A stretch of DNA of 63,122 nucleotides from Candidatus Aminicenantota bacterium. Its GTDB lineage: Bacteria; Acidobacteriota; Aminicenantia; JAMOAD01. Below, piece after piece: positions 3,106 to 36,561 of the stretch (position 1 is its first letter; each line of letters begins with the position of its first letter). Made by a program: the position numbers and the translations under genes. The stretch spans positions 1-63,122 of the forward strand of contig JAMOVU010000010.1 in assembly GCA_027067555.1 (NCBI GenBank). Reading direction: 5' to 3'. The notes below the pieces were generated by a model that saw only the letters and a program-made list of their open reading frames with translations, made no database searches and was not told the DNA's origin.

Positions 3106-4482
3106 ATGAGTAATCTTGCTATTATACTTGCAGGTGGTTCTGGATCAAGGCTTAAGCAGGAGACTCCCAAGCAATTTTTGAAATTAGCAGGTAAGCTTAT
3201 TATAGAACATACAATTGAGAAATTTGAAAATCACGAAGATATAGATGCTGTTTATATTGTGACCAATCCTATGTATTATGAAAAAACTATTGAGATTATT
3301 GAAAAAAATAATTATAAAAAAGTCAGGAAAATTTTAAAAGGGGGGAAAACAAGACAGGAATCTTCCTACATTGGAATTTCCGCTGCCTCCGATGAATTTG
3401 AAAATGTGCTTATTCATGATGCTGTACGCCCTTTTCTTTCAAAAGAGATTATTGATAATATAATAGAAAAATTAAATGATTTTAGTGCCATAGATGTTGC
3501 AATCCCTTCTCCTGACACTATTATAAAAATAAATGATAAGAATATAGTAAAGGATATCCCGGAAAGAAAGTATTTGAGAAGGGGGCAGACTCCTCAGGCT
3601 TTTAAGCTTCAGCTTATAAAAAAAGCTCATGATCTTGCGATTAAAGATAATTTTTTAAATGCTACAGATGATTGTTCTCTGGTTTTAAAATACGGACTTT
3701 CGGAAATTTATGTTGTTGATGGCTCAGATTTTAATATTAAAATAACCTATCCTATAGATATTCACATTGCTGACAAGATTTTTCAGGTTAAAAACAGAAC
3801 TCTTCTTAATTTTAATCAAAATGAATTAGCCTCTGTCCTGAAAAATAAAATTATAGTTGTTTTCGGTGGAAGTAGTGGGATAGGGGAGGCAATTGTAAAG
3901 ATAGCTAAGGAATACGGAGCAAAGGCTTACTCATTTTCAAGAAAAAACGGAGTTGACATAAGGAATTATGAGAGTGTTAAGAGTGCACTTTTATCAGTTA
4001 AAAAGAAAGAAGGAAGAATAGATTCTATTGTTGTTTCCGCAGGTGTTTTGGAGTTCGGTTTCATAGAGACTGTTGATTTGAAAATCATTGAGGATATGGC
4101 AATTGTAAATTATCTTGGAAGTATTTATGTGGCAAAGGCATCTGTTGAATTTTTAAAAGAAACAAAAGGGAGCCTGATTTTCTTTGCTTCGAGCTCATAT
4201 ACGAGGGGTAGGGCAGGATATTCGGTTTACTCTTCCTCAAAGGCAGCAATTGTTAACTTTGCACAGGCAATAGCGGATGAATTCTCAAAAGATGGAATAA
4301 AGGTGAATATAATAAACCCCGAAAGAGCCGCCACTCCAATGAGATTTAAGACTTTTGGAAAAGAGGATAAAAACACACTTCTTTCACCGGAATTTATTGC
4401 GATAAACACTTTAAACATAATGTTTAAGGAAATTACAGGACAAGTTTTTGACATAAGAGTTATTGATGAAAAGGGGAATTAG
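3106..4482 (+). CDS. Bifunctional cytidylyltransferase / short-chain reductase (Bcs1-like CDP-ribitol synthase)
   Basis: Two fused domains. Residues 1 to about 230 form an IspD/TarI-type cytidylyltransferase: AIILAGGSGSRL, QETPKQFL, HDAVRPF and the later ATDDCSLV are visible. Residues from about 245 form a short-chain dehydrogenase with GGSSGIGEAI and a YSSSK active site. The order and 458-residue size match Haemophilus Bcs1/Acs1, which reduces ribulose 5-phosphate and makes CDP-ribitol. I infer the same role here, feeding a ribitol-phosphate-containing surface polymer. I used the ATG at 3106; a TTG at 3100 is in frame. No ribosome site is visible. A stand-alone IspD role is less likely because of the reductase fusion and the polysaccharide context. 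Confidence 0.82.
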   Translation: MSNLAIILAGGSGSRLKQETPKQFLKLAGKLIIEHTIEKFENHEDIDAVYIVTNPMYYEKTIEIIEKNNYKKVRKILKGGKTRQESSYIGISAASDEFENVLIHDAVRPFLSKEIIDNIIEKLNDFSAIDVAIPSPDTIIKINDKNIVKDIPERKYLRRGQTPQAFKLQLIKKAHDLAIKDNFLNATDDCSLVLKYGLSEIYVVDGSDFNIKITYPIDIHIADKIFQVKNRTLLNFNQNELASVLKNKIIVVFGGSSGIGEAIVKIAKEYGAKAYSFSRKNGVDIRNYESVKSALLSVKKKEGRIDSIVVSAGVLEFGFIETVDLKIIEDMAIVNYLGSIYVAKASVEFLKETKGSLIFFASSSYTRGRAGYSVYSSSKAAIVNFAQAIADEFSKDGIKVNIINPERAATPMRFKTFGKEDKNTLLSPEFIAINTLNIMFKEITGQVFDIRVIDEKGN

Positions 4483-4495
4483 AAGCTCATAGAAC

Positions 4496-4556
4496 ACGAG
4501 TATTTTCACCTGTATCCCAAAAAACTGACGAGTATTTTTGACAATGGGTGAAAATA
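4496..4556. repeat. Direct and inverted repeats upstream of the DUF4143 gene
   Basis: ACGAGTATTTT occurs at 4496-4506 and again at 4528-4538. TATTTTCACC at 4501-4510 is the reverse complement of GGTGAAAATA at 4547-4556, which sits in the promoter spacer. The arrangement looks like a pair of regulator sites or a foldback in the intergenic DNA. Confidence 0.45.
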
Positions 4557-4566
4557 GTAGTATATT
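4538..4566 (+). promoter_or_regulatory. Strong vegetative promoter, leaderless
   Basis: A perfect TTGACA (4538-4543), a 17-bp spacer and TATATT (4561-4566). Only five bases separate the -10 from the ATG at 4572, so transcription should begin at or next to the start codon. Confidence 0.75.
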
Positions 4567-4571
4567 AAGAT

Positions 4572-5687
4572 ATGATAAGAAGGTATTTGTATGATCAGGT
4601 TAAAACAGACTTGAAAAAGAAAATGGTTTTTATTGCAGGACCGAGACAGGTTGGAAAAACCACATTTTCCAAAGATGTTATAAGTGATGATGGAAGATAC
4701 TTGAATTGGGATATTCCGGAAGACAGAGAAATTATTTTAAATAATGAAATTCCTCTGGAAGAAAAGATTGTATTTGATGAAATTCATAAATATAAAGGTT
4801 GGCGGGGATATTTAAAAGGGATTTTTGATAAGTACGGGAATAAAAAGAAAATTCTTGTAGTAGGGAGTGCAAAACTTGATTTTTACAGATACGGAGGGGA
4901 TTCTCTTCAGGGTAGGTACTTTTTTTTCAGATTGCATCCGTTTTCTGTTGCCGAACTAAAAATAAGAGATAAGGATAAATTTGAAAAATTGTTGAAGTTG
5001 GGAGGGTTTCCCGAACCATTTTTAAGTGATTCGGAAACAGAAGCAAAGAGATGGGCAAGGGAGTATCGTAGCAGATTAATATATGAGGAAATTGAAAGTC
5101 TTGAAAATATCTCGGATATATCTAAGATGGAGCTTTTGGTATTAAGGCTTCCGGATTTAATAGGCTCTCCGCTTTCAGTAAATTCATTAAGAGAGGATTT
5201 GCAGGTTTCCCATAAGACTGTTTTAAGATACCTTGAAATATTGGAAAGACTTTATCTTATTTTTAGTATTCCCCCTTTTGGCTCTCCTTTGATAAGAGCT
5301 GTTAAAAAGGAAAAAAAGTATTATTTTTACAATTGGTCGGTTTTGTCCGAAAATTTACCAACAGCTTTTGAAAATATGGTTGCCTCTCATCTTTTAAAAT
5401 GGATACATTTTGAGCAGGATACCAGGGGAAGAGATCTGGAATTAAGATATTTCAGAGATGTTGAGGGAAGGGAAGTGGATTTTGTTATTACAGAAAGATT
5501 AAAGCCTGTTCGTTTTGTAGAGGTTAAGTGGCGGGATAGGAAAACCTCCAAAAATTTGAAATATTTGAAGAAAAAATTTCCTGATGTTCAAGCGATTCAG
5601 GTAATAGGTGAAAAAAGTTTTTCAACTGAGACCAAAGAAGGAATTTTGAAAAAATCTGCCATTGAATTTTTATCAGAACTTGTTTGA
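4572..5687 (+). CDS. AAA_14 / DUF4143 family ATPase
   Basis: A 371-residue ATPase of the AAA_14 plus DUF4143 family. The N-terminus has Walker A in AGPRQVGKTTFSK (near residues 22-34) and a Walker B-like KIVFDEIHKYKGWRGYLKG near 66-84. LPDLIGSPLSVNSLREDL and HKTVLRYLEILERLYLIF form the winged-helix part typical of DUF4143, and the C-terminus holds a restriction-endonuclease-like stretch (REVDFVITE, RFVEVKWRD). Members are widespread and often transferred, but their cellular function is not settled. It stands alone, with a promoter directly at its start codon and no ribosome site. Confidence 0.85.
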   Translation: MIRRYLYDQVKTDLKKKMVFIAGPRQVGKTTFSKDVISDDGRYLNWDIPEDREIILNNEIPLEEKIVFDEIHKYKGWRGYLKGIFDKYGNKKKILVVGSAKLDFYRYGGDSLQGRYFFFRLHPFSVAELKIRDKDKFEKLLKLGGFPEPFLSDSETEAKRWAREYRSRLIYEEIESLENISDISKMELLVLRLPDLIGSPLSVNSLREDLQVSHKTVLRYLEILERLYLIFSIPPFGSPLIRAVKKEKKYYFYNWSVLSENLPTAFENMVASHLLKWIHFEQDTRGRDLELRYFRDVEGREVDFVITERLKPVRFVEVKWRDRKTSKNLKYLKKKFPDVQAIQVIGEKSFSTETKEGILKKSAIEFLSELV

Positions 5688-5724
5688 TTATAGAGATTAA
5701 GTTTTAGAGCTGATTTTAGTATTT

Positions 5725-6885
5725 TTAAAAATAAATGCCTGCAAAACTTACCATTGACCCTCCACTTTCATCAATGGTAAATCTATAGTCAATTAATTCA
5801 CCTTTTTCCTTCTTTACTAATTTTAGAAGAGTGTAAATCGGTCCCATACCGCAAATATTTGTGAAATTTTTGTTTTCTATTAGTTTATTTATAAAATCAT
5901 CAGGCTTTTTCTCAATTGCCAGATCTAAAACTTCTTTGTCATAATTTACTGTTTCTTCCCTTTTTTCAATTGCAGGAAAGGGATCTCCGAATTGAATCCC
6001 TCTATGGCTCAGGTCAGAAGCTGCTATCAAAAATATATCATCATTTAAAAGCTCTTTTAACCAATCTATAAATTCACTGTGTTTTCTTCCGTCTAAAAAT
6101 GAAGGTGCGAGTATGGGTAAAATCGTGAAATCTTCAAAAAGCTCTGCCAAGATATTGACCTGAAACTCGATTGAATGTTCGTATTTATGTGCAATTGAAT
6201 CCTCAAAGTATTTTTCACCGAATCTGTTTTTTAGATTTTCAATAAACTCTCTGTCATACTGTACCAATTTCCCTGTTGGTGTTTCAAAATCTTTTTCGGC
6301 CACAATGAACTCATCTTTAAACATAGTATGATTTGTTCCGAGGATTATGAATCTTTTAAAATTTTTATTTATTAGCCCCGAATAAACCTTGACATAGCTC
6401 TCTTTTCCTCTAAAATAGTCTATATGGGGACTTATTATGCCCTGTTCAGGCTGTTTCTTATTTTTGTATGATTTTACCTCTTTTATAAAATCTTTAAAGA
6501 ATTCCTTCCCCTTTTCGTCCTCTAAAAAAAAAGTATCATTAAGTTTTCTCACTTTTTCCTTTTTAAACTTCTCCTTTTCATCATTTAATTTTTTTCTGAA
6601 TCTTACATTATCAAGGAGATAATTTTGGTCAAAGAAAGAAATAATCTCCTTTACAAAGTTTGTAGGAAGTTCCCTTCTGAATCTAAAATAAAAATTATCC
6701 TGTAAATCTCTCATAGGGGTTACCCCATTAAAAAAATAAATAATAAAGGCGACTTCCTCTTTTATAAAGAATTCATTGGAAAAACCGAGAGGATCTCTTA
6801 TAACAAACCCTTTTTCACCATTTACTATTGCGGGAAAACTCTCAAATTGTCTCAATGCAGGAAGTGGCATTGGATTATTTATCAC
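5725..6885 (-). CDS. Memo-like protein (AmmeMemoRadiSam system protein B)
   Basis: The C-terminal 235 residues match the Memo family: SPHIDYFRG (about 152-160), LGTNHT near 180 and ICGMGPIY near 346 supply the two His and one Cys of the predicted metal site. The roughly 130-residue N-terminal part contains a winged-helix-like segment and a charged linker, as in some bacterial members. Memo proteins are structurally related to extradiol dioxygenases, and their bacterial role is unclear. The usual partners, an AMMECR1 protein and a radical SAM protein, are not in the window. The start is either GTG 6885 or ATG 6870; neither has a ribosome site, and TTGTAT-N17-TAAATA five bases before 6870 hints at a leaderless start there. 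It converges with the DUF4143 gene. Confidence 0.85.
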   Translation of the reverse strand: MINNPMPLPALRQFESFPAIVNGEKGFVIRDPLGFSNEFFIKEEVAFIIYFFNGVTPMRDLQDNFYFRFRRELPTNFVKEIISFFDQNYLLDNVRFRKKLNDEKEKFKKEKVRKLNDTFFLEDEKGKEFFKDFIKEVKSYKNKKQPEQGIISPHIDYFRGKESYVKVYSGLINKNFKRFIILGTNHTMFKDEFIVAEKDFETPTGKLVQYDREFIENLKNRFGEKYFEDSIAHKYEHSIEFQVNILAELFEDFTILPILAPSFLDGRKHSEFIDWLKELLNDDIFLIAASDLSHRGIQFGDPFPAIEKREETVNYDKEVLDLAIEKKPDDFINKLIENKNFTNICGMGPIYTLLKLVKKEKGELIDYRFTIDESGGSMVSFAGIYF

Positions 6886-6940
6886 AAAATAAAATAAAAT
6901 ACAAGGAGAGTATCTTTTGTAAGGTTAATCTGGGGAGTAA

Positions 6941-7294
6941 TTATTCTACTCTTCCGAAATCATCCTCAATTCTCACAACATCATCAAGTTCAGGTGTTGA
7001 AACTTCAAGAATGTGGCTGTCTTCAAGTGCTTCCACTCTGTGTTTTGTGTATGGCTTAAAGTGTATTGACTCCTCTTTTGTTAGTATTATTTCTTTCTTT
7101 TCTCCATCTATTTCTGTTATTATTTTTACCTTCCCGCTGAAAAGGTACATTGTTTCATCTTTTTTTTCGTGATACTGATAACTCAGTCTACTTCCTTTTT
7201 TAACGAATAATATTTTGCCTGCATACTTATCTGTGTGAGCGTAGAGAATTTCATATCCCCAGGGTTTTTCGATTTTCTTAATTTTATTGAGCAT
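6941..7294 (-). CDS. Cupin, phosphomannose isomerase type II-like
   Basis: A 117-residue single cupin domain. It starts with KPWGYEILYAHTDKYAGK, the signature of the type II phosphomannose isomerase / mannose-6-phosphate cupin group, followed by LSYQYHEKKDETMYLFSG (metal His and Glu) and HFKPYTKHRVEA (second metal His). The ATG at 7294 has AAGGAGA six bases upstream. It is the last gene of the long PTS/rpoN operon, 15 bp after ptsI. It may isomerise or bind a phosphosugar, or act as a sugar-sensing cupin. The substrate is not deducible. Confidence 0.8.
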   Translation of the reverse strand: MLNKIKKIEKPWGYEILYAHTDKYAGKILFVKKGSRLSYQYHEKKDETMYLFSGKVKIITEIDGEKKEIILTKEESIHFKPYTKHRVEALEDSHILEVSTPELDDVVRIEDDFGRVE

Positions 7295-7309
7295 TTTCAA
7301 TCTCCTTTA

Positions 7310-9070
7310 TTATTTTATCAAATTAATGTTCTCAAAAAGTGTTTTGGGACAGGATTTTAAGAAACTTTCAATTACAAATTCCTTTACTTCATCAGCTGAA
7401 GAAAGATTCAGTGCTTTTTTTGAAATTTTTTTTAAATTTCTTATGCAGCTTGCTCTGAGTGTTCTTTTTACAAGAGGGATGGCAATGGGGGACATGCTTA
7501 TGCTATTAATTCCTAATCCCAAAAGTATCATTGCAAATATTGGATTGGAAGCCATCTCTCCGCAAATTTGAACTTCAATTCCTGCTTTTCTGCCTTCATC
7601 TGCCACATTTTTTATTAATTTAAGGATTGCCGGGTTTACTGCTTTGTAAAGATAGTTTACGCTCGGATTTCCCCTGTCAACTGCAAGGGTATACTGTATT
7701 AAGTCATTTGTTCCAATACTAACAAAATCAACTTCTCTTGCCAATTTATCTATTATTAAAGCAGCTGATGGAACCTCTACCATTATTCCGAGATCATAAT
7801 CATTTCTATTTATATTTTCTTCTTTTGCAATTTTATTAACAATTTCCTTTATTTCTCTTATCTCTTCCACTTCAGTAATCATAGGAAATAAAATTTTTAC
7901 CCTGTGCTTTTTCCCGGCTCTAAGTATCGCTCTGATTTGCTCAGTAAGAATTTGAGGATTTTTAATAAAATACCTTATTCCTCTAAGGCCTAATGCAGGG
8001 TTATCCTCTTTGCCAATTGTAAAGAAAGCGCTCTTTTTCTCTCCTCCTATATCAACAGTTCTAATTACCACAGGTTTTCCATTCATCTTTTCAAGCACTG
8101 TTGTATAAAGTTTTTCTTGCTCTTCGGGAGTCGGCTCTTTATCACTAAAAAGATATAAAAATTCTGTTCTGAATAGCCCAATTCCTTCTGCACCGAAAGA
8201 TAAAGCTAATTCCACTTCTTCTGGAAGCTCTATATTTGCCATTATTCTAAAGGGATAGCCATCCATAGTTTCCGAAGGGAGTTCTTTAACGGATTTTAAT
8301 TCAAGCAAATACTTTTCATATTGCTCTTTTTTATTTAAATATTCTTTTTTCGTAGCAAGGGTAGGCTCAAAAATAACTTCCCCTTCGATTCCATCCACTA
8401 TTACTTCTGCTCCATCATAAATTTCAGAAAGCTCTGCCTTTATATTTATAACAGCAGGAATTTCAAAGGCTTTTAGGAGAATTACAGAATGAGAATTTAA
8501 TCCTCCTTTTGTTAATATTACACCTTTGAGATTTTCTTTCGTAATTAAACTTGCTATTTCCGAAGGTGGGATATCATCCGCAATAATAACAACAGGCTTA
8601 TTTTCGGGAAAAACTTTCTCCTTTACATCTTTTCTTTTAAGGCTTTCAAGGAGTCTATTAAGGGCATCATTTATATCATTAATTCTATCCCTGAAGTATT
8701 CATTATCAAATTCTTCAAAAATCCTTTCATATTTTAATCTGACTAAATGAATAGCCCATTCGGATCTAACCTTCTCTTCTTTTATTATTTCTTTTATAGT
8801 ATCAATTAATTCTTTATCCTTTAAAAGGAGAATTAATGTATCAAGAATTATTGCAGATGCTTTTCCCCTATTTTTTTCTACTCTTTGCCTTATTGCTTCA
8901 AGTTCTTTTATTGATTTTTTAACAGCCCTGTCAAATCTTTTTAATTCTTTTGGTATTTGTTTATCTGGAATACTTTCCCTTAAAATAAACTCAGTTTCCA
9001 TTTTCATTGAAAAGAGGCTACCTATTCCTATACCCGTGGAAGCTGCTATTCCTTCTATTTTCTTGGTCAC
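7310..9070 (-). CDS. ptsI: PTS enzyme I (phosphoenolpyruvate-protein phosphotransferase)
   Basis: Enzyme I takes phosphate from phosphoenolpyruvate onto a His and passes it to HPr. At 586 residues it is full length. Visible are the phospho-His loop TKGGLNSHSVILLK (His about 194), GIGLFRTEFLYL, the PEP-binding VIRTVDIGGEKK, DFVSIGTNDLIQYTLAVDRGN and the active-site Cys region EVQICGEMASNP. There is no N-terminal GAF domain, so it is ordinary EI rather than PtsP. The start is a GTG at 9070 that shares one base with the ptsH stop. With no EIIB or EIIC in the window, its job here is probably regulatory phosphotransfer. Confidence 0.95.
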   Translation of the reverse strand: MTKKIEGIAASTGIGIGSLFSMKMETEFILRESIPDKQIPKELKRFDRAVKKSIKELEAIRQRVEKNRGKASAIILDTLILLLKDKELIDTIKEIIKEEKVRSEWAIHLVRLKYERIFEEFDNEYFRDRINDINDALNRLLESLKRKDVKEKVFPENKPVVIIADDIPPSEIASLITKENLKGVILTKGGLNSHSVILLKAFEIPAVINIKAELSEIYDGAEVIVDGIEGEVIFEPTLATKKEYLNKKEQYEKYLLELKSVKELPSETMDGYPFRIMANIELPEEVELALSFGAEGIGLFRTEFLYLFSDKEPTPEEQEKLYTTVLEKMNGKPVVIRTVDIGGEKKSAFFTIGKEDNPALGLRGIRYFIKNPQILTEQIRAILRAGKKHRVKILFPMITEVEEIREIKEIVNKIAKEENINRNDYDLGIMVEVPSAALIIDKLAREVDFVSIGTNDLIQYTLAVDRGNPSVNYLYKAVNPAILKLIKNVADEGRKAGIEVQICGEMASNPIFAMILLGLGINSISMSPIAIPLVKRTLRASCIRNLKKISKKALNLSSADEVKEFVIESFLKSCPKTLFENINLIK

Positions 9071-22857: not shown

Positions 22858-23634
22858 TTAAAATAAAAAGAATTTTTTCTTTATGTTTTTCAGAACCAAT
22901 TTTGAAAATTCTTCGATATCAACCCCGAATTTTTTAAAAGCATACTCATCATAAGGAGTATCACCTTTGTTGATAATAATCAGTCTGCCGTCATTGTTTA
23001 AGGTACACTCGGGTATTTTTGCAACCGGATGAACTATCAGAGATGAGCCAAATACGAGACAATAATCCGATTGTCCGGCAATACTTCTCATTCTATTGAT
23101 TAGATTGGGATCAATTTTTTCTCCGAAAAAAACAACATCCGGTTTTAAAACACTACCGCATTCTGTGCATTTGGGAAGTTTCTCATTCTGGATTTCTTTA
23201 TATACTTCATCAAGAGTGTACTCCTTTTCGCAATTAAGACACCTGAATCTTTCGAATGTTCCGTGAACTTCTATAAGCTTTTCTGTGCCTGCTTTCTTAT
23301 GGAGTCCGTCAATATTTTGAGTGATTACCCAATTCACTTTTCCAAGCTCTTCAAGTTTTTTTATCAATAGATGAGCAGAATTGGGTTTTGATTGTTTAAG
23401 AAGTTTGAGATAATCTTTTGCAAAAAGATAAAAGGATTCAGGATCTTTTTTAAAACTTTCAAGGTCAAAGACATTCTTTTCTGAAACAGTGTAAAGGCCG
23501 TTTTCTCCTCTGAAATCCGGAATCCCCGAAGCAGTGCTCACTCCTGCTCCTGTGATTATACAAAAATTGTCTTCCTCTTTTACAAGAGTTGCAAATTCTT
23601 TTGCAGCGAGCTCTTCATCAAGTATTAATCTCAT
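22858..23634 (-). CDS. NAD-dependent protein deacylase (sirtuin, CobB/Sir2 type)
   Basis: A 258-residue sirtuin that removes acyl groups from lysines with NAD. Motifs are ITGAGVSTASGIPDFRG (NAD site), TQNIDGLHKKAG with catalytic HGTF (His near 117), a Cys4 zinc site in CLNC and CTEC, and VFGSSLIVHPVAKIP. The start overlaps folC by 17 bp. Deacylation or delipoylation targets are unknown. Confidence 0.93.
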   Translation of the reverse strand: MRLILDEELAAKEFATLVKEEDNFCIITGAGVSTASGIPDFRGENGLYTVSEKNVFDLESFKKDPESFYLFAKDYLKLLKQSKPNSAHLLIKKLEELGKVNWVITQNIDGLHKKAGTEKLIEVHGTFERFRCLNCEKEYTLDEVYKEIQNEKLPKCTECGSVLKPDVVFFGEKIDPNLINRMRSIAGQSDYCLVFGSSLIVHPVAKIPECTLNNDGRLIIINKGDTPYDEYAFKKFGVDIEEFSKLVLKNIKKKFFLF

Positions 23635-24895
23635 TTAATATCCTTTTAACATCTCCCACCAAATAGAGAGAACCTGTTATTAGTATTTTGCTCTTTCCAC
23701 TATTTTTTAGAATCTTTTCAACAGCTTTTTTGAGGTCAAGCTCAATTTCAAAATTTCTATTTGTATGGGAAAATTTTTTGTAAATATTCTCCGGATCTTC
23801 CGCTCTGTAAATATTTGCTTTTGTAAGTATTATTTTTTTGCAAAAGGGGAAAAGCATTTTGCCCATTTCATCTATCTTCTTTCCCTGTGAAACTCCAAAA
23901 AGACAGCAAAGATCTCTTAAATTTTCATTTTCTAAAAATTCTGTAAGTCTTCTTATCCCGTCAATATTGTGAGCCCCATCAAAAATAATTTTATCCTGAT
24001 AAATTTCAAGCCTTCCCTCTATTACTGCGTTTTCAATTCCTTTTATTATATAGCTTTTTTTTTGTTTACTAAAAACCGGCAAATTTTCATATATCTTTAT
24101 TGCCAGAGATGCATTTTCTCCCTGATGATTTCCAGGCATTTTCGGTTTGAAAAAATAATCATCTTTGACTGTATGATAGTGAAATGTTCTATTATTTTTT
24201 TTGTAAAGTTTATTTTTTTTATCAAAAGTTTTGATTAATTTTGAATTATTTTTTTCTGCAAAGTCTTTTATAATTTTGACTGTATGTTTTGGAATTCTTC
24301 CTATTACTATGGGTGTATTTGGTTTTATTATACCTGCCTTTTCTCTGGCAATTTTTGTAAGTGTTTTTCCTAAAATTCTTGTGTGATCATAGCTGATTGT
24401 TGTAATTGCTGAAATAAGAGGGAAGAGAACATTTGTGGCATCAAGTCTTCCTCCGAGTCCTATTTCAAAAACACCGAAGTCCACATTCTTTTCATTAAAG
24501 TACAGGAAGGATGCAACAGTCATTGTTTCAAAAAAGGTCAGACGATTGGGTAAAATCTTTTTTTCAAATGCTTTTTTAACTTTATCCTTTATGAAAAAGA
24601 CAATTCTTTCAAGTTCATCATAATTTATTTTTTCCCCGTTAATTCTAATTCTTTCATTAACTTCAATTAAGTGGGGAGAAGTGAAAAGGCCGACTTTGTA
24701 TCCCAATGATTGCACAATTGATGATAAAAAGGTTGAAACAGAACCCTTTCCATTTGTCCCTGTTATTAGGATAGATTTTATACTTTTTTCAGGATTTCCG
24801 ATCTCATTTAAAAATAATTTAATCCTATCTAACTCTAATTTAAAACCACTCTTTTGTATTGAAACTAAGTATTTTTCTAAATCTTTTTTTGACAA
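23618..24895 (-). CDS. folC: Folylpolyglutamate / dihydrofolate synthase
   Basis: FolC adds glutamate to dihydropteroate and folates. The 425-residue Mur-ligase-type protein shows ITGTNGKGSVSTFLSSI (ATP loop, about 43-60), FTSPHLIEVNERIRING, FEIGLGGRLDATN, the carbamylated-Lys region EKAGIIKPNTPIVIG and FDGAHNIDGIRRL. It starts directly at the stop of the small coiled-coil gene and overlaps the sirtuin gene. No other folate gene is nearby. Confidence 0.93.
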   Translation of the reverse strand: MSKKDLEKYLVSIQKSGFKLELDRIKLFLNEIGNPEKSIKSILITGTNGKGSVSTFLSSIVQSLGYKVGLFTSPHLIEVNERIRINGEKINYDELERIVFFIKDKVKKAFEKKILPNRLTFFETMTVASFLYFNEKNVDFGVFEIGLGGRLDATNVLFPLISAITTISYDHTRILGKTLTKIAREKAGIIKPNTPIVIGRIPKHTVKIIKDFAEKNNSKLIKTFDKKNKLYKKNNRTFHYHTVKDDYFFKPKMPGNHQGENASLAIKIYENLPVFSKQKKSYIIKGIENAVIEGRLEIYQDKIIFDGAHNIDGIRRLTEFLENENLRDLCCLFGVSQGKKIDEMGKMLFPFCKKIILTKANIYRAEDPENIYKKFSHTNRNFEIELDLKKAVEKILKNSGKSKILITGSLYLVGDVKRILNEINT

Positions 24896-25132
24896 TTAGA
24901 TTTCTTCTGCTTCCTCCTCTTCATCAGCAAATTCGTCAGGTACTCCCAAGAGTGTAGCAGCACCATCATAGATCTGTTTGATTACCTTTCTTCTGCTTTT
25001 TAATTCTTCCATTTTTTTCTTAAAATTTTCGATTTCCTCTTCAATTTGCTGATCAATAGCTTTAATCTGCTCTCTTGTTTGATTTAATGTGTTTGTGTAA
25101 AAATCCTTCTGTTCTTTGCTTAATTCAGCCAT
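24896..25132 (-). CDS. Small acidic coiled-coil protein
   Basis: A 78-residue protein I do not recognise. Residues 5-60 are a continuous heptad-like helix rich in Glu, Lys and Gln (TLNQTREQIKAIDQQIEEEI), followed by a short predicted amphipathic part and a strongly acidic tail (FADEEEEAEEI). AGAGGTG lies at good spacing from the ATG. It sits between the receiver-kinase-TonB gene and folC with gaps of 17 and 0 bp, so it is co-transcribed. A scaffold or chaperone-like role is possible, but no function is assigned. Confidence 0.7.
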   Translation of the reverse strand: MAELSKEQKDFYTNTLNQTREQIKAIDQQIEEEIENFKKKMEELKSRRKVIKQIYDGAATLLGVPDEFADEEEEAEEI

Positions 25133-25149: not shown

Positions 25150-28100
25150 TTATTTTTTTATTAATAAAGAAACCATTTTCCATGTTCTTACTTTAATTCC
25201 ATTTCTTCTTGGTTTTGTAAATCTCCATTGGTCAATGACTTTAGCCATTTTTTGTTCCATTCCTGCTACAGGTGGAATTGATCTTATTACTCTAAATTTT
25301 TCGACCTTTCCATCCGGTCCAACAAGCATCTGGATAAATAGCCTCACATTACCAAGCCTTGCTTCTTCATAGGTTAAGCTTGGGATTCCTCTTTTTAAAA
25401 TTTTTAGAGGTTTGTCCAGTGTATTGAGAGGAACAACTTCTCCTTCTTTAAAAGCTGGTTTTTGAACCTCGGGCTTTGATAGAGGTGTTTTTTGAGGTTT
25501 TACTTGATTTGATTGTTGAGTTTGATTGGTTGTGTTTGTTTGCTGAGAATTAACATTTTGATTGTTCTGGGTATTATTGTTTGCACTGGTATTCGTTTGC
25601 TGATTGTTTGCAGTGTTCTGAGGCTGTTGGTTGCTCTTTGCACTTTGAACCTGAGAAAGTGTATTTTGGATGCTCTTATTTTGATTCTTTTGATTTGTCT
25701 GTTTTTGCTGAGAAACTATATTTTTATTCTGGTTTGTTTTTTTAGGCTTTTTGGTGGTTTTGGGAGGAGTTGTTATTGTTTTAGTTTTCTGATTCTGAGC
25801 CTTTATTTTATTTTGTGCCTGATTGATGTTTGATTGAGTTTTTTGTTGATTCTGAGATGTTGTATCTATTTTCTGCTGAGTAGTTTGCTGTGTTTGTGTA
25901 TTTTGGTTTGTGAACTGAGTGTTTTGTGTGTTTTGAGTTGTATCAATGTTGGTTTGTAAATCCTGACTCTCTGTTGTTTGTTCATTTGTGAGATTACTTT
26001 CAACGGGTAAATTTTGTGATGCGATAGTTTTTTCTTTTTTTACAGGAGCTGGATTTATAGGGAATTCTTTTATTGCAACATAATTTGAATAAAAGTAATA
26101 GCCGGCTCCTCCTAAAATAACCATTAAAATTATTATAATAAGAAGAGCTTTTGAGGATTTTTTCTCCTCCATTAACACTGATTCTATTTCTTCATTTAAT
26201 TCTTTTACTTTTTCCTTACTTTTATCTTCTTTGACCTCTTTGACGGGCTTTTCTTTTTCAGTAGAGGGTTCTATTATTTCTTTAATTTTCTCTTTTTTCT
26301 TCTCTTCCAATATTTTTTCAGTTTTCTCAACTCTTCGAATTTCTTTTTTCTCTTCCTCTGGAGTTTCAATTACTTCTTCTACTTTCTTTTCCTCTTTTTT
26401 CCTTATTATTTCATCAAATTCCTTTTTCTTTTTGATAATTTCTGTTGTATCTTCTATTGAAAATCCCTCTTTTCTGACCTCTTCCGGAAACATTCTTGCC
26501 ATAAACTTTGATAAGATATCTTTCATAATAGCCACATTGTTTACCTCTTTAACAAGCTCTTTTTCAATTTCATTGCTAAGCTCTTTTGCTGTCTGGTATC
26601 TGTCGTCAGGAGATTTCATGAGGCATTTTTTTATTATTTTTAAAATATTTTCTGAGATAGATTTATTCCATATATTGGGAGGATCATACTCAACTTTTCT
26701 CACTTTTTCTAAGATGGCCGTTTCTGAAGTTGCAATAAATGGATTTCTTAAGGTTAGCATTTCATAAAGTAAAACACCAATTGCGAATATATCTGATCTG
26801 CTATCAATGTCCTCTTTACCCATTGCCTGTTCAGGAGACATATAAATAAGTTTTCCCTTTAAACCTCCTGCTACCGTTTGATGTAATTTTATTTTTGCCT
26901 TTGAAATGCCAAAATCTGTTAATTTAACCTCTCCTTCGTATGATAGAAGAATATTGTTGGGATTCACATCTCTATGAACTATATTTAAAGGTTCTCCTTT
27001 TGAATCTTTTTTTCGATGGGCATAGTCAAGTGCATCACTTATTTTCAAAGCAATATATAGGGCTATATCCATTGGTAGTGACTTTTTTTGTTTCCTTAAT
27101 TTCTTTAACACAGCTCCGAGATCTTTCCCTGACACATATTCCATTGCGATTATGTATTCATTGTTCATCTTCCCCAAGTCAAAAATCTGGACTATATTAG
27201 GGTGAGAAAGAGATGCCGCTATTCGAGCTTCATCAATAAACATTGTTATAAAATCATCATCCTGAGCAAGATGTGGTAATATTTTCTTAATTGTAACTAT
27301 TTTTTCAAAGCCGACAGGCCCTTTTTGCTTGGCTTTGTATATTTCCGCCATACCTCCTGTTGCAATTTTGCTTAAAAGTTCGTAACGCCCCTCAATTTTA
27401 TCAACATTTTTTTGGATTTCCTCTTTCTTCTCTTCAAGTTCTTTTTTTAATTTTTCCTGTTCTTCTCTTTTTTCAGAGGTTCTGGCTGGTTTTTTATAAC
27501 CTGTTTTTTTTAGTTCAACGAGGGTTTTTCTTATTAATTTGTCTATATCATCTGTTTCTATGTTTCTTTTAGTTTTCTTTTCCTCTTTTTTTATAACTTC
27601 TTTTTTCTTATCTTTTGGTGTTATTATGTCTGTTATTAATTTATCAATGTCCAGGGTATCACTTTTTTTATGGGAATGTTTATCATGATGCACTGTCTCT
27701 TTTTCAGGTTCTATTTCCTGAATTTCTGGAATTTCCTCTTTGGCTTCCTCAATTTCATTGATTTCCTCAATTTCTTCTATCTCTTCTATTTCTTGTTTAA
27801 CCTCTTCGTGGTTAAAATTCTGAGTTTTTTCTATCTCTTTTTCAACTTTTTCTTTTTCTTTGTTTATGTCTTTTTCAACTTTTTCATTTATTTCTTTAAG
27901 AATATCTCCGAATAAATCATCTGAGCTCATTAATTCTCTCTCTTCCGGGGATATTTCTTTACCTACCATTTTCTCCATTTCTTCTTTTTCAAATAATTGG
28001 GTTTTACCCTCATCATCTTCTTTTTCTTCTTCTAATTCGAGATTTAGCTTTTCTAATATTGTTTTTTTCAAAGATTCAAGAGAAAAAGGTTTTTCCAGAA

Positions 28101-28410
28101 AGGCAGAAGCTTTGTTAACACTTAAGGCTTTATTTTTAATTGAGCTTCCTTTGTATATACCTGAAACTATGAGAACTGGAAGAGCAGAGCCAAATTTTGT
28201 GTAAATTGTTTTTGAAAGTTTTAACCCATCAATTTTAGGGATAACTATTTCTGCTATAATTAAGTCAAAAGAATTATCAAGTATTTCCAATACCTGATTT
28301 CCGTCTTTTGCAATTACAATTTCTGCTTTGTACTTTGTAAAGAAATCTTTAATGCTTTTTATAAATTTTTGGTCAGTATCAACAATTAATACCTTTTTTA
28401 ATTTCTTCAC
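25150..28410 (-). CDS. Receiver - Ser/Thr kinase - TM - TonB C-terminal domain fusion
   Basis: A 1086-residue multidomain protein. Residues 5-120 form a response-regulator receiver in which the phosphorylated Asp is replaced by Glu54 (IIAEIVIPKIDG); the acidic pocket (Asp11, Asp13), Ser83 and Lys107 remain. A charged coiled-coil linker (120-335) leads to a Hanks-type kinase (about 338-610) with GGMAEIYKAK, HRDVNPNN, TDFG and SPEQ. After another charged stretch there is one transmembrane helix (about 750-775), a Gln/Asn/Thr-rich spacer (about 805-990) and a TonB/AgmX-like C-terminal domain (FIQMLVGPDGKVEKFRVIRS). The receiver and kinase should be cytoplasmic and the TonB domain periplasmic. 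GTG start with AGAGGTAAAAGA upstream. Confidence 0.85.
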   Translation of the reverse strand: MKKLKKVLIVDTDQKFIKSIKDFFTKYKAEIVIAKDGNQVLEILDNSFDLIIAEIVIPKIDGLKLSKTIYTKFGSALPVLIVSGIYKGSSIKNKALSVNKASAFLEKPFSLESLKKTILEKLNLELEEEKEDDEGKTQLFEKEEMEKMVGKEISPEERELMSSDDLFGDILKEINEKVEKDINKEKEKVEKEIEKTQNFNHEEVKQEIEEIEEIEEINEIEEAKEEIPEIQEIEPEKETVHHDKHSHKKSDTLDIDKLITDIITPKDKKKEVIKKEEKKTKRNIETDDIDKLIRKTLVELKKTGYKKPARTSEKREEQEKLKKELEEKKEEIQKNVDKIEGRYELLSKIATGGMAEIYKAKQKGPVGFEKIVTIKKILPHLAQDDDFITMFIDEARIAASLSHPNIVQIFDLGKMNNEYIIAMEYVSGKDLGAVLKKLRKQKKSLPMDIALYIALKISDALDYAHRKKDSKGEPLNIVHRDVNPNNILLSYEGEVKLTDFGISKAKIKLHQTVAGGLKGKLIYMSPEQAMGKEDIDSRSDIFAIGVLLYEMLTLRNPFIATSETAILEKVRKVEYDPPNIWNKSISENILKIIKKCLMKSPDDRYQTAKELSNEIEKELVKEVNNVAIMKDILSKFMARMFPEEVRKEGFSIEDTTEIIKKKKEFDEIIRKKEEKKVEEVIETPEEEKKEIRRVEKTEKILEEKKKEKIKEIIEPSTEKEKPVKEVKEDKSKEKVKELNEEIESVLMEEKKSSKALLIIIILMVILGGAGYYFYSNYVAIKEFPINPAPVKKEKTIASQNLPVESNLTNEQTTESQDLQTNIDTTQNTQNTQFTNQNTQTQQTTQQKIDTTSQNQQKTQSNINQAQNKIKAQNQKTKTITTPPKTTKKPKKTNQNKNIVSQQKQTNQKNQNKSIQNTLSQVQSAKSNQQPQNTANNQQTNTSANNNTQNNQNVNSQQTNTTNQTQQSNQVKPQKTPLSKPEVQKPAFKEGEVVPLNTLDKPLKILKRGIPSLTYEEARLGNVRLFIQMLVGPDGKVEKFRVIRSIPPVAGMEQKMAKVIDQWRFTKPRRNGIKVRTWKMVSLLIKK

Positions 28411-32478: not shown

Positions 32479-35400
32479 TTATTTTTTAGTTCTTAAAATT
32501 TTTCTTATTTTTTGTGAAAGGTTTTCTATTGTATAAGGCTTTCCGAGAAAGTTAATACCTTTTTCAAGGAAACCCCTATTTACAATATGATTGTCAGTGT
32601 ATCCTGAGGTAAATAATACTTTTATATCTGGTATTAACTCTTTAATTTTAACAGATAGTTCTTTTCCATTCATTTCCGGCATGATAATATCTGTTATTAA
32701 TAGGTGAGGTTTTAAATTTTTTTCTTTTAGTAAAACCAAGGCATTTTTTCCATTAGTGGCGGATATTACATTGTAATTTAGGGATGCTAAAGCTTCTGTT
32801 ATAAAATTTCTAACATCTTTATCATCCTCTACAACGAAAATTAACTCACCTTTTCCACTATAGATTTTTTTGCTCTCTTTTCTTTTCACTGCTTTTGCTT
32901 TACCCTTTTTTTTCGCAACTGGCCAGTATATTTTAAATGTAGTACCTTTGTTTTCTTCAGAATAAACATTAATGTATCCATTGTTTTGTTTAATTATTCC
33001 GTAAACCGTTGATAATCCCAATCCTGTCCCTTTTCCTTTTTCCTTTGTTGTAAAAAAAGGCTCAAATATTTTGCTGAGATTTTCTTTTTTTATACCCTTT
33101 CCTGTATCACTCACAGATAATTCCACATAATCTCCTTCTCTGAACTCAAGATGTGTTTTTATATTTTCCTTTTCAAAGTGCCTGAACTTTGTTTCTATTG
33201 TTATTAATTTTTTTGAATTTTCTTTTTTTTCAAGAATTGCATCCCTTGCATTTATTACTAAATTTACAAGAATTTGTTCTATTTGCTGTTGATCCGCTTC
33301 TATCTTAGGTAATTTTTTGTTTAAGATTAATTTTATTTCTATATCTTCTCCGATTAGTCTTTTTAACATATTTATTGAGTTCTCAATTAATGTATTTAGA
33401 TTCACTATTTCTGTTCTTACTGTTTGCTTTCTACTAAAAGCAAGCAGTTGTTTTGTTAAGGATTCGGCCCTTTCTGAAGCTTTCTGGATGTTTTCTAATT
33501 TTGTTTTTATCTTTTTATTGATTTCTTTTGATTTTAATAAGATATTGGTATAACCTTTTATAACGGTTAATAAGTTGTTGAAATCATGAGCTATTCCTCC
33601 GGCTAATTTTCCAATTGCTTCCATCTTTTGAGATTGTATAAGTTGTTTCTGTAATTTGTTTCTTTCGGTTACATCCCTGTAATTTAATATAATCCCCCTT
33701 ACACTTGGAAGTTTTATAAGGTTGGTGGCTGTTCCTTCTATATCAAGCCAGTGACCATTAAAATGTCTAACTCTGTAATTAAATGAAAGGCTTTCTCCAT
33801 AACTTTTTTTTATTTTTTTAAAATCATTAATAAGTTTTTCTTTATCATCTGGATGAATATAATTGAAAATAGAATTATTTATAATAGTTCCTTTCGGGTA
33901 ACCCAATACCCTGTTTTTTGAAGGTGGCTCAAATACGACCTTCCCCTTTTCGTCAAGTATAATAATATTATCCTGGGCATTTTCAATAATACTCCTAAAA
34001 AATTCCTCCCTTGCCTTAAGTCTTTTTTCAGCTCTTTTTCTTATGGTAATTTCTTTTTTTAATTGTTCGAAATGTTGAGCTCTTTGAAGAGCTTCTGAAA
34101 TTTGATGAGCAAAAATTTCAATAGCTGTGATATCAGATTTTTTTAAGTTTTCTGAAATAACTATTATGGCTCCTTCAACTCTCTCATCTATTAAGAACGG
34201 AGAAATTACCAGTTGACTCAGCTTAAGAAGTTTTATTATCTGTTTTATGTCTTCTTTGTTTAGTTTAAAAACTTTTTTAATAAAATTATAGGGATTTTTT
34301 AAAAAAACGGACTTTTTATTATTTATAACTCTTGAGAATTCAGCAGTACTTGATACAGGGATTTTTAAGAGATCCTTTTTTGATTTTTTTATTATATTTT
34401 TTAGTTTTGTGACTTTTGTTTTAGGAAAGGAAATATAGGTAGGGGTTAGAGCTTTTCCCTCTTCGTTCAGAATAAAAAAATTAAAGTAAAACCCATTCTG
34501 TTTAAGAGAACGGGACACTCTTTTAAAAATTTCACTTCTTGTGAGAGCTGTTTGCATGGATTCACCGGCTTTTTTTAATACTTTTATCATTTTTTCTGAA
34601 TGCTTTTTTTGGGTTATATCTCTAATTATTACCTGAATGTAAATCTCCCCCTGAAGTTCAATTGAATTAAGACTTACCTCTGCATCAAATTTTTTCCCAT
34701 TGCATTTAAGGTGCACCCATTCGAAAAGTTGTGGCTTTCCATTGAGAGCCGCGTTGATTTTTTCAATGGCTTTTTCCTTTGAATTTTTTCCATCCGGCTG
34801 AAATTCCGGAGAAAATTTATAAGGTGGGGACCCAATTAACTGATCCTTTGTACATTCGAATATCTTTAGAGCTTGTTTATTGCAATCTATAAAAATGTCA
34901 TCTTTAATTAACAGGATAGCATCTCCGGCTGCACTAAAAAGAGTTCCGTAAAGTTTTTCGCTTTTTTTTATTTTTTCTTCTGCTTTTTTTTGCTCTGTTA
35001 TGTCAATTAGAACCCCCACCATTTTCAATGGTTCTCCTTTTTTGCTCCACTCAATGACCTTCCCTCTGTCAAAAACCCAGATCCACTCATTTTTTTTATT
35101 ATGAGTTTTTATTCTGTATTCAATTTCAAAAAGAGGAGTTTTCCCCTTAAGGTGATTATCTAATCTTTGTTTAAATAACTCAATATCATCGGGATGAATT
35201 AATCTTAACCAGTCATCAATGTTTTCACCTTCTTTTGGAGTGATTATTATTCTTTGCCACCTTTTATCACGAGTAATGATGTCCTTTTTTATATCCCAAT
35301 TCCAGGTTCCAAGATTTATTGTTTCCATTGTAAGATCAAGACTCTCTTCAGCTGTTGTTTTTTCTGTTTTTAAAAAACTTATCTTTTCTCCCATTGCTTG

Positions 35401-36561
35401 GATAAAAAAGAAAAGGGAAATAGAGATTATTATTATATAAGAATAATCACTAAAAATTTCTCTTTTTAAAATACCGTAAAGAGTGAGTACTCTCAAAATT
35501 CCTGTTAAATTTAAAAAGATTAGACTTATTAAAAAGGGCTTTGCTGGGGTGTATCCTCTTAATAAAATAATCAGAGCAATAGGGATGGCAATGAAAAGGG
35601 TAAGGTATAGGAATGCCAGTAAAATTTTCATTAATGGGATAAAATTGTTAAGGGAAATAAAAGGGAGAAGCAAGAGAATGAAATAACTCAAACTCAGAAA
35701 AAAATAGTGGGCTATTTTAAAATATTTTTTGGTTTCAAGAAAGCTAATAAAAAAATGAGAAAAAGAAAATATAAATATTATATTGGTAATCAGAATTAAG
35801 AGCTTGTTAAAATATAAATGATTATACCAAAAAAAAAGAACCCCATACCCTTGTTGTGCAAGGAAAAATAATGTAAAAGAAAGCATGGATATTAAAAACC
35901 AGAGGATACATTTTTCATGGAATTGAAAGAAAAGAATTAAAAAGTAGAGAAGTGAGAGAAACAAAATACCTATAAAAATACTGTTGGTAAAAAGGTTTTT
36001 ATTTAGATATTTCACAGCTGCTTTATAACTTAATAATTTCGATGATAAAAAGAGAGAAGATTTTGATGATATTTTTAATATTAAAGTATATTTCTTATTT
36101 TTTTTTAAATTCAGTGATATTAAAAATTTATGAAAAAGGTTTTCTCTTGTTTTTATATCCCTCAAAATTCCAGTTTTTACACTTTTTATTATTTGTTTTT
36201 TGTCATTTAAAAGATAAAAGTCAATAAAATCAATGTTCGGGAAATTAAAAATAATACCAAAGTTTTCATCATTACTTTGATTAATAATAGAGAATTTCAG
36301 CCAAACTGGATATGGAAGAAAACCTAAATTAGATTTTCCCTTAAGAGGAGTAAAATCAGAGGATTCTTTTTTTATTAAGTCTTTTATATCTATTTTTTTT
36401 GTTTTGTCTATTTTATATTCGTAGTAATAAGTAAGATCGATAGTGAGCTTCTTTTCCTTGATTAAAAGTTCTTTCGAGAGTAATAATTGGGAGGAGAAGA
36501 GAATTAGAAGAAAAAGATAGAGGAAGAGCGATTTTGGATTAAATCTTTTTATTATTCGAAT
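32479..36561 (-). CDS. 7TMR-DISM hybrid histidine kinase, likely ATT start
   Basis: A hybrid sensor kinase. The conventional start would be TTG at 36165 (1228 residues), but the frame stays open to 36603, and residues read upstream form a classic signal peptide (RIIKRFNPKSLFLYLFLL) and a 7TMR-DISMED2-like periplasmic domain (LTIDLTYYYEYKID, GFLPYPVWLKFSIINQ). No ATG, GTG or TTG exists in that stretch; ATT at 36561, five bases after GGGG, fits best (1360 residues). Then follow seven membrane helices (about 190-400), PAS, PAS, GAF-like and PAS domains, HisKA with GGIAHDFNNLL, an HATPase and a receiver with a normal Asp (LLITDIIMPEMNG). Together these suggest sensing of a periplasmic ligand. Confidence 0.8.
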   Translation of the reverse strand: MRIIKRFNPKSLFLYLFLLILFSSQLLLSKELLIKEKKLTIDLTYYYEYKIDKTKKIDIKDLIKKESSDFTPLKGKSNLGFLPYPVWLKFSIINQSNDENFGIIFNFPNIDFIDFYLLNDKKQIIKSVKTGILRDIKTRENLFHKFLISLNLKKNKKYTLILKISSKSSLFLSSKLLSYKAAVKYLNKNLFTNSIFIGILFLSLLYFLILFFQFHEKCILWFLISMLSFTLFFLAQQGYGVLFFWYNHLYFNKLLILITNIIFIFSFSHFFISFLETKKYFKIAHYFFLSLSYFILLLLPFISLNNFIPLMKILLAFLYLTLFIAIPIALIILLRGYTPAKPFLISLIFLNLTGILRVLTLYGILKREIFSDYSYIIIISISLFFFIQAMGEKISFLKTEKTTAEESLDLTMETINLGTWNWDIKKDIITRDKRWQRIIITPKEGENIDDWLRLIHPDDIELFKQRLDNHLKGKTPLFEIEYRIKTHNKKNEWIWVFDRGKVIEWSKKGEPLKMVGVLIDITEQKKAEEKIKKSEKLYGTLFSAAGDAILLIKDDIFIDCNKQALKIFECTKDQLIGSPPYKFSPEFQPDGKNSKEKAIEKINAALNGKPQLFEWVHLKCNGKKFDAEVSLNSIELQGEIYIQVIIRDITQKKHSEKMIKVLKKAGESMQTALTRSEIFKRVSRSLKQNGFYFNFFILNEEGKALTPTYISFPKTKVTKLKNIIKKSKKDLLKIPVSSTAEFSRVINNKKSVFLKNPYNFIKKVFKLNKEDIKQIIKLLKLSQLVISPFLIDERVEGAIIVISENLKKSDITAIEIFAHQISEALQRAQHFEQLKKEITIRKRAEKRLKAREEFFRSIIENAQDNIIILDEKGKVVFEPPSKNRVLGYPKGTIINNSIFNYIHPDDKEKLINDFKKIKKSYGESLSFNYRVRHFNGHWLDIEGTATNLIKLPSVRGIILNYRDVTERNKLQKQLIQSQKMEAIGKLAGGIAHDFNNLLTVIKGYTNILLKSKEINKKIKTKLENIQKASERAESLTKQLLAFSRKQTVRTEIVNLNTLIENSINMLKRLIGEDIEIKLILNKKLPKIEADQQQIEQILVNLVINARDAILEKKENSKKLITIETKFRHFEKENIKTHLEFREGDYVELSVSDTGKGIKKENLSKIFEPFFTTKEKGKGTGLGLSTVYGIIKQNNGYINVYSEENKGTTFKIYWPVAKKKGKAKAVKRKESKKIYSGKGELIFVVEDDKDVRNFITEALASLNYNVISATNGKNALVLLKEKNLKPHLLITDIIMPEMNGKELSVKIKELIPDIKVLFTSGYTDNHIVNRGFLEKGINFLGKPYTIENLSQKIRKILRTKK

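What the first reader, a model, noticed from the sequence alone, without database searches (positions are those of the whole stretch)
25150..28410. Receiver, Ser/Thr kinase and TonB-type domain in one transmembrane protein
One polypeptide joins a receiver domain, a Hanks-type kinase, a single transmembrane helix, a Gln/Asn/Thr-rich spacer of about 180 residues and a TonB/AgmX-like C-terminal domain. The spacer is long enough to cross much of the periplasm, which suggests a kinase that senses or pulls on an outer-membrane partner. A divergent outer-membrane-type gene is adjacent.
Basis: partly seen in the sequence, partly recalled or inferred. Interest (0 to 1): 0.72.

Follow-up and report, generated by a model that had tools for sequence, protein, structure and literature searches.

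The report
TonB-tailed kinase with dead receiver
This gene encodes an inner-membrane protein that joins a non-phosphorylatable receiver, an intact protein kinase and a long periplasmic arm ending in a TonB-type domain; the same module, with a small helical partner gene, recurs across one bacterial phylum and may carry cell-envelope signals to the cell interior without the usual TonB energy coupling.

Summary
TonB_C is below the Pfam cut-off in the window itself, but it passes strongly in relatives, and an AlphaFold model (pLDDT 90) matches solved TonB C-terminal domains as its top hits.

Three corrections change the picture. (1) The receiver has lost its phospho-aspartate (Glu in the window, Glu/Ser/Ala in all 27 testable class relatives), so it is an aspartate-less receiver. 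(2) The helix lacks the His that ExbB/ExbD-coupled TonB proteins keep (0 of 63 here; 6 of 6 short TonBs examined in the same class have it), and no exbBD genes are adjacent. It is probably not an energy transducer. (3) The adjacent outer-membrane gene is not a conserved partner. The conserved partner is an overlooked 78-aa single-helix protein, 24896-25132 (-), found in 90 of 247 genomes of the phylum and next to this kinase in most loci read.

The module is old (probably Acidobacteriota). Kinase, TonB domain and anchor have each been lost separately. Best reading: an envelope-sensing kinase with a passive TonB-type arm. Ligand and substrates are unknown.

The parts
25150..28410 (-). Whole protein, 1086 aa: aspartate-less receiver, Ser/Thr kinase, transmembrane helix, spacer, TonB-type C-terminal domain
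28057..28392 (-). Receiver domain (aa 7-118), aspartate-less: Glu at the CheY D57 position, acid residue 1 and the conserved Lys kept
   Evidence: Pfam 2.9e-16; alignment to CheY
27898..27927 (-). Conserved linker motif [ST]xxD[LI]FGD[ILV][ILV] (aa 162-171, SSDDLFGDIL)
   Evidence: 43 of 50 intact kinase-bearing members, 0 of 8 kinase-less members of the class; chance 0-2.5% per linker by shuffling
27511..27552 (-). Second conserved linker motif DDIDKLIRKTLVEL (aa 287-300)
   Evidence: similar motif in kinase-bearing and kinase-less members
26584..27384 (-). Hanks-type Ser/Thr kinase domain (aa 343-609) with Lys, HRD..N and DFG
26092..26148 (-). Single transmembrane helix (aa about 755-773), no His
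   Evidence: hydropathy; 0 of 63 family members with His
25486..26058 (-). Low-complexity periplasmic spacer (aa 785-975), 60% Q+N+T
   Evidence: length but not composition roughly kept
25153..25443 (-). TonB-type C-terminal domain (aa about 990-1086), preceded by a conserved EGxVVPxxxLD segment
24896..25132 (-). Companion gene, 78 aa, predicted one long helix (aa 6-62) with an acidic tail; no Pfam family over its cut-off
23618..24895 (-). folC-type Mur ligase, next gene in the run (kinase - companion - [accD] - folC order recurs); context, not proposed as part of the mechanism

Best explanation
An inner-membrane signalling kinase that monitors the cell envelope. SHOWN by sequence or model: cytoplasmic-type N-terminal half with an aspartate-less receiver, a linker with conserved short motifs, and a kinase with all catalytic motifs; one membrane helix; an unstructured-looking periplasmic tether; a TonB-fold domain at its tip; a co-encoded 78-aa single-helix protein. 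INFERRED: the TonB-type domain binds an outer-membrane partner passively, most simply the exposed TonB box of TonB-dependent receptors, which these genomes have. It is not driven by ExbB/ExbD. Engagement of the tip changes clustering or activity of the cytoplasmic kinase, which phosphorylates unknown substrates. The dead receiver works as a phosphorylation-independent docking or dimerising platform, and the small helical protein is a dedicated cytoplasmic subunit bound to the receiver-linker part. Lineages that lost the kinase but kept receiver, anchor, TonB domain and companion suggest that platform and kinase are separable. The confidence given covers 'envelope-sensing, unpowered TonB-type arm, dedicated helical subunit'; the TonB-box step alone is about 0.25.
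For: Domains. TonB fold. Phospho-Asp lost; [quoted passage not shown]). Kinase motifs complete in 50 of 51 kinase-bearing members. No His in the helix, 0 of 63, against 6 of 6 short TonBs of the class, some beside exbB/exbD. ExbD in 60 of 60 genomes; Plug domains in 15 of 15. Companion: 44 of 46 companion-positive class genomes have the receiver-TonB protein, 0 of 14 companion-negative ones do (my tally). The companion is kept where the kinase is lost (L072, L076, L078) and where the TonB domain is lost (L119, L133-L136). The TonB domains of this protein and of its pseudokinase paralogue form one clade in the window's family (SH-aLRT 100) and are 71% identical within genome G004, against 49-59% to their own orthologues in the window's genus, as if both must fit one partner.
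Against: No ligand, substrate or expression data. Window TonB_C alone is sub-threshold, and the YP motif near its start is lost in the window, so binding of ordinary TonB boxes is not assured. Kinase loss in several families and TonB_C loss in one large family show that no single output is universal. The within-genome similarity of the two TonB domains is clear in one genome only.
Confidence: 0.5

Rival explanations
1. Peptidoglycan or septum sensor: the TonB-type tip binds the cell wall or a divisome protein rather than an outer-membrane receptor, making this a Gram-negative functional counterpart of PASTA kinases.
For: Anabaena SjdR is a TonB-like protein needed for septal peptidoglycan structure, with functions apparently unrelated to TonB-dependent transport (PMC8262864). 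The kinase domain's best NCBIfam match is the PASTA kinase model (264.5 bits).
Against: Fold matches are all to TonB C-terminal domains. No PASTA or other wall-binding domain was found. No wall genes are conserved next to it; the recurrent neighbours folC and accD are folate and lipid genes.
Confidence: 0.2
2. Structural scaffold or motility/polarity platform: the receiver, anchor and TonB tip with the helical protein make a trans-envelope scaffold, and the kinase is an accessory.
For: Kinase-less members keep receiver, anchor, TonB_C and companion in families f3, f7, f8, f10. FrzS of Myxococcus, an aspartate-less receiver with Ala (PMC4395418), and GltJ, with a TonB-like C-terminus (PMC8262864), are known as motility proteins.
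Against: The kinase catalytic motifs are preserved in 50 of 51 kinase-bearing members, and the FGD linker motif goes with the kinase. In f31 the TonB tip is gone while kinase and companion stay.
Confidence: 0.2
3. True TonB energy transducer under kinase control: ExbB/ExbD drives the helix and phosphorylation switches it on or off.
For: TonB fold; ExbD, canonical TonB and receptors occur in the same genomes.
Against: 0 of 63 helices hold the His that 6 of 6 short TonBs of the class keep. A large cytoplasmic half precedes the helix, unlike TonB. No exbBD genes were seen next to it.
Confidence: 0.08

Closest known systems
Aspartate-less receiver (ALR) domains, e.g. FrzS, RitR, ChxR (PMC4395418)
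   Same: Receiver fold without the phospho-Asp; Glu in the window, the commonest ALR substitution; acid residue 1 and Lys kept
   Different: Fused to a membrane kinase with a TonB tip; no DNA-binding output
Hanks-type transmembrane Ser/Thr kinases (PknB/Stk1 PASTA type; Myxococcota-type kinases)
   Same: Kinase domain with all motifs, single helix, extracytoplasmic sensor-like part; best named plasmid hit is a Sandaracinus kinase, 40% identity
   Different: No PASTA repeats (NCBIfam 264.5 against cut-off 450); the sensor is a TonB-type domain; N-terminal dead receiver
TonB energy transducer
   Same: C-terminal domain fold; long low-complexity periplasmic linker
   Different: No helix His, large cytoplasmic part, no adjacent exbBD
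TonB-like proteins not tied to transport: SjdR (Anabaena), GltJ/AgmX (Myxococcus)
   Same: TonB-like region on a membrane-anchored protein with a low-complexity linker
   Different: No receiver-kinase half is described for them; direct homology beyond the TonB fold was not found here

Membership tests
Aspartate-less receiver (ALR) | Receiver-domain homology | tested here: met
   Pfam Response_reg 2.9e-16
Aspartate-less receiver (ALR) | Phospho-Asp replaced | tested here: met
   Glu in the window; no Asp in 27 class members; Asp in 3 of about 23 other phylum members
Hanks-type Ser/Thr kinase | Catalytic Lys, HRD..N, DFG | tested here: met
Hanks-type Ser/Thr kinase | Kinase activity | not testable with these tools
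   needs biochemistry
TonB energy transducer | TonB C-terminal fold | tested here: met
TonB energy transducer | Transmembrane His for ExbB/ExbD coupling | tested here: not met
   0 of 63 against 6 of 6 short TonBs of the class
TonB energy transducer | exbB/exbD operon | tested here: not met
   the ExbD genes of the window's genome lie on other contigs, C63, C128, C139
PASTA kinase (PknB/Stk1) | PASTA repeats / family score | tested here: not met
   no PASTA hit; 264.5 bits against cut-off 450
Two-component response regulator | Phosphorylatable receiver Asp | tested here: not met
GltJ/AgmX | Homology outside the TonB-like domain | tested here: inconclusive
   no other N-terminal Pfam domain in the window protein; direct comparison with GltJ not run

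The most novel reading that the evidence does not exclude
A phylum-wide sensor kinase that reads the state of TonB-dependent outer-membrane receptors: an unpowered TonB domain on a tether binds exposed TonB boxes and turns that into Ser/Thr phosphorylation, with a dead receiver and a 78-aa helical subunit as its cytoplasmic switch.
Probability: 0.22. Interest if true: 0.8.

Novelty: new variant of a known kind. Interest (0 to 1): 0.58.

Why it matters
Known routes from outer-membrane receptors to the cytoplasm use anti-sigma factors and a powered TonB. A kinase that carries its own unpowered TonB tip would be another route, testable in any cultured member. The conserved 78-aa partner and linker motifs give concrete handles, and the separate losses of kinase, TonB domain and anchor are a natural experiment on which parts work together.

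Tried and rejected
Neighbouring barrel-type gene as partner: rejected. Q/N/T richness as a functional feature: rejected as largely compositional. Chance TonB_C hit: rejected. Naming the organism by a genome-contig scan failed: only unrelated receiver hits. The Acidobacteria 16S signature GATCCTGGCTCAGAATC (recalled from memory) occurs in 19 of 119 genomes of the phylum and the reversed control in none listed, so the phylum is probably Acidobacteriota; the class (Aminicenantia?) is a guess. The companion's Pfam and PDB matches are generic coiled-coil hits. Literature searches found no earlier description; the library is open-access only, and one search was malformed.

Full report
WHAT IS THERE. 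The window ORF 25150-28410 (-) is intact. Pfam finds a receiver, a Ser/Thr kinase and a weak TonB_C. One clear transmembrane helix lies at about aa 755-773. The weak TonB_C was checked in two ways. Relatives of related build pass the Pfam cut-off by a wide margin. An AlphaFold model of the last 110 residues, from 40 aligned relatives, has mean pLDDT 90, and its first 14 PDB matches are TonB-type C-terminal domains, including TonB bound to FoxA and BtuB.

RELATIVES. The TonB-type tail matched 46 of 60 related genomes. Reading the loci gives several builds: A, receiver-kinase-helix-TonB_C, like the window; B, the same without the kinase; C, a degenerate kinase-helix-TonB_C without receiver, including one in the window's own genome (G000:C24, read as L062); D, a single zinc-ribbon kinase-TonB_C (L079). 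A and B share the same companion gene. Because A is found across the phylum, B is most simply A that lost its kinase.

THE COMPANION. A 78-aa ORF at 24896-25132 (-) follows A and B. It is alignable across the class, modelled as one 57-residue helix, and has no curated family. A profile finds it in 90 of 247 genomes and 50 of 140 genera of the phylum. Of 38 loci then read, most of them from other families and classes, most place it directly after a kinase of the same subfamily, usually with receiver and TonB_C too. In the 60 class genomes, my tally gives 44 with both, 2 with the companion alone (G010, G022), 14 with neither, and none with the receiver-TonB protein alone. One of the 44, G006, has a broken TonB frame next to the companion. 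The genes are adjacent, so joint loss by deletion is part of this pattern.

LOSSES. In f31 (many single-contig genomes of about 3.3 Mb) the protein ends just after the helix, with no TonB_C (L119, L133-L136). In f45 no helix is evident (L104, L108). The companion stays in all of these. The gene order kinase-companion-accD-folC recurs in distant families.

RECEIVER. Aligned with CheY, position 57 is Glu, Ser or Ala in all 27 class members with an intact N-terminus, and is Asp in only 3 of about 23 others. This meets the definition of aspartate-less receivers (PMC4395418). Asp-to-Glu need not mean constitutive activity, as that paper stresses.

KINASE AND LINKER. 50 of 51 kinase-bearing members hold Lys, HRD..N and DFG. 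A short motif, [ST]xxD[LI]FGD followed by two hydrophobic residues, lies between receiver and kinase in 43 of 50 intact kinase-bearing members and in none of 8 kinase-less class members. L141, with receiver and TonB_C but no detected kinase, still has it. A role in kinase regulation or docking is inferred. Members share descent, so these counts are not independent events.

NOT A POWERED TONB. The helix lacks His in all 63 members scanned. Six of six short TonB proteins from the same class have it, and the two read in full sit beside exbB/exbD. The role of this His in ExbB/ExbD coupling is established knowledge, not tested here.

PARTNER. A tree of 92-residue tails joins the A and C tails of the window's family as one clade (SH-aLRT 100; few columns, so finer forks are weak). 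In G004 the two tails are 71% identical to each other, against 49-59% to their own orthologues in the window's genus. Gene conversion, or selection for one shared ligand, would explain it. The adjacent barrel-type gene is a multicopy family whose presence does not follow the kinase.

VERDICT. A genuine, conserved architecture: a new variant of transmembrane Ser/Thr kinases. The mechanism is inferred. Phylum and class names are inferred and unproven.

Noticed in passing
L062 (G000:C24) 4044-5942 (-) and 5966-8716 (-): In the window's own genome a zinc-ribbon Ser/Thr kinase gene is followed by a degenerate-kinase-helix-TonB_C protein; in family f4 the counterpart follows FHA and TPR genes.
   Followed up: partly
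G006:C21:50349-51377, G012:C9:144705-145247: Proteins with two or three TonB_C domains in one frame; L082 and L085 of this kind begin with a signal-peptide-like segment rather than an internal anchor.
   Followed up: no
L137 6819-7115, L138 4604-4930, L140 4706-5008: In family f7 the 78-aa companion occurs alone, away from any receiver, kinase or TonB gene.
   Followed up: partly
L141 3309-6590: Receiver and TonB_C protein of 1093 aa with the FGD motif but no detectable kinase, outside the class: perhaps an independent kinase loss or replacement.
   Followed up: no
L109 3936-4772 and 4919-7060: Receiver and kinase-TonB parts lie in two separate ORFs, and this receiver keeps its Asp.
   Followed up: no
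window 32479-36165 (-): Large hybrid sensor kinase: 7TMR-DISM, PAS domains, HisKA/HATPase and a receiver.
   Followed up: no
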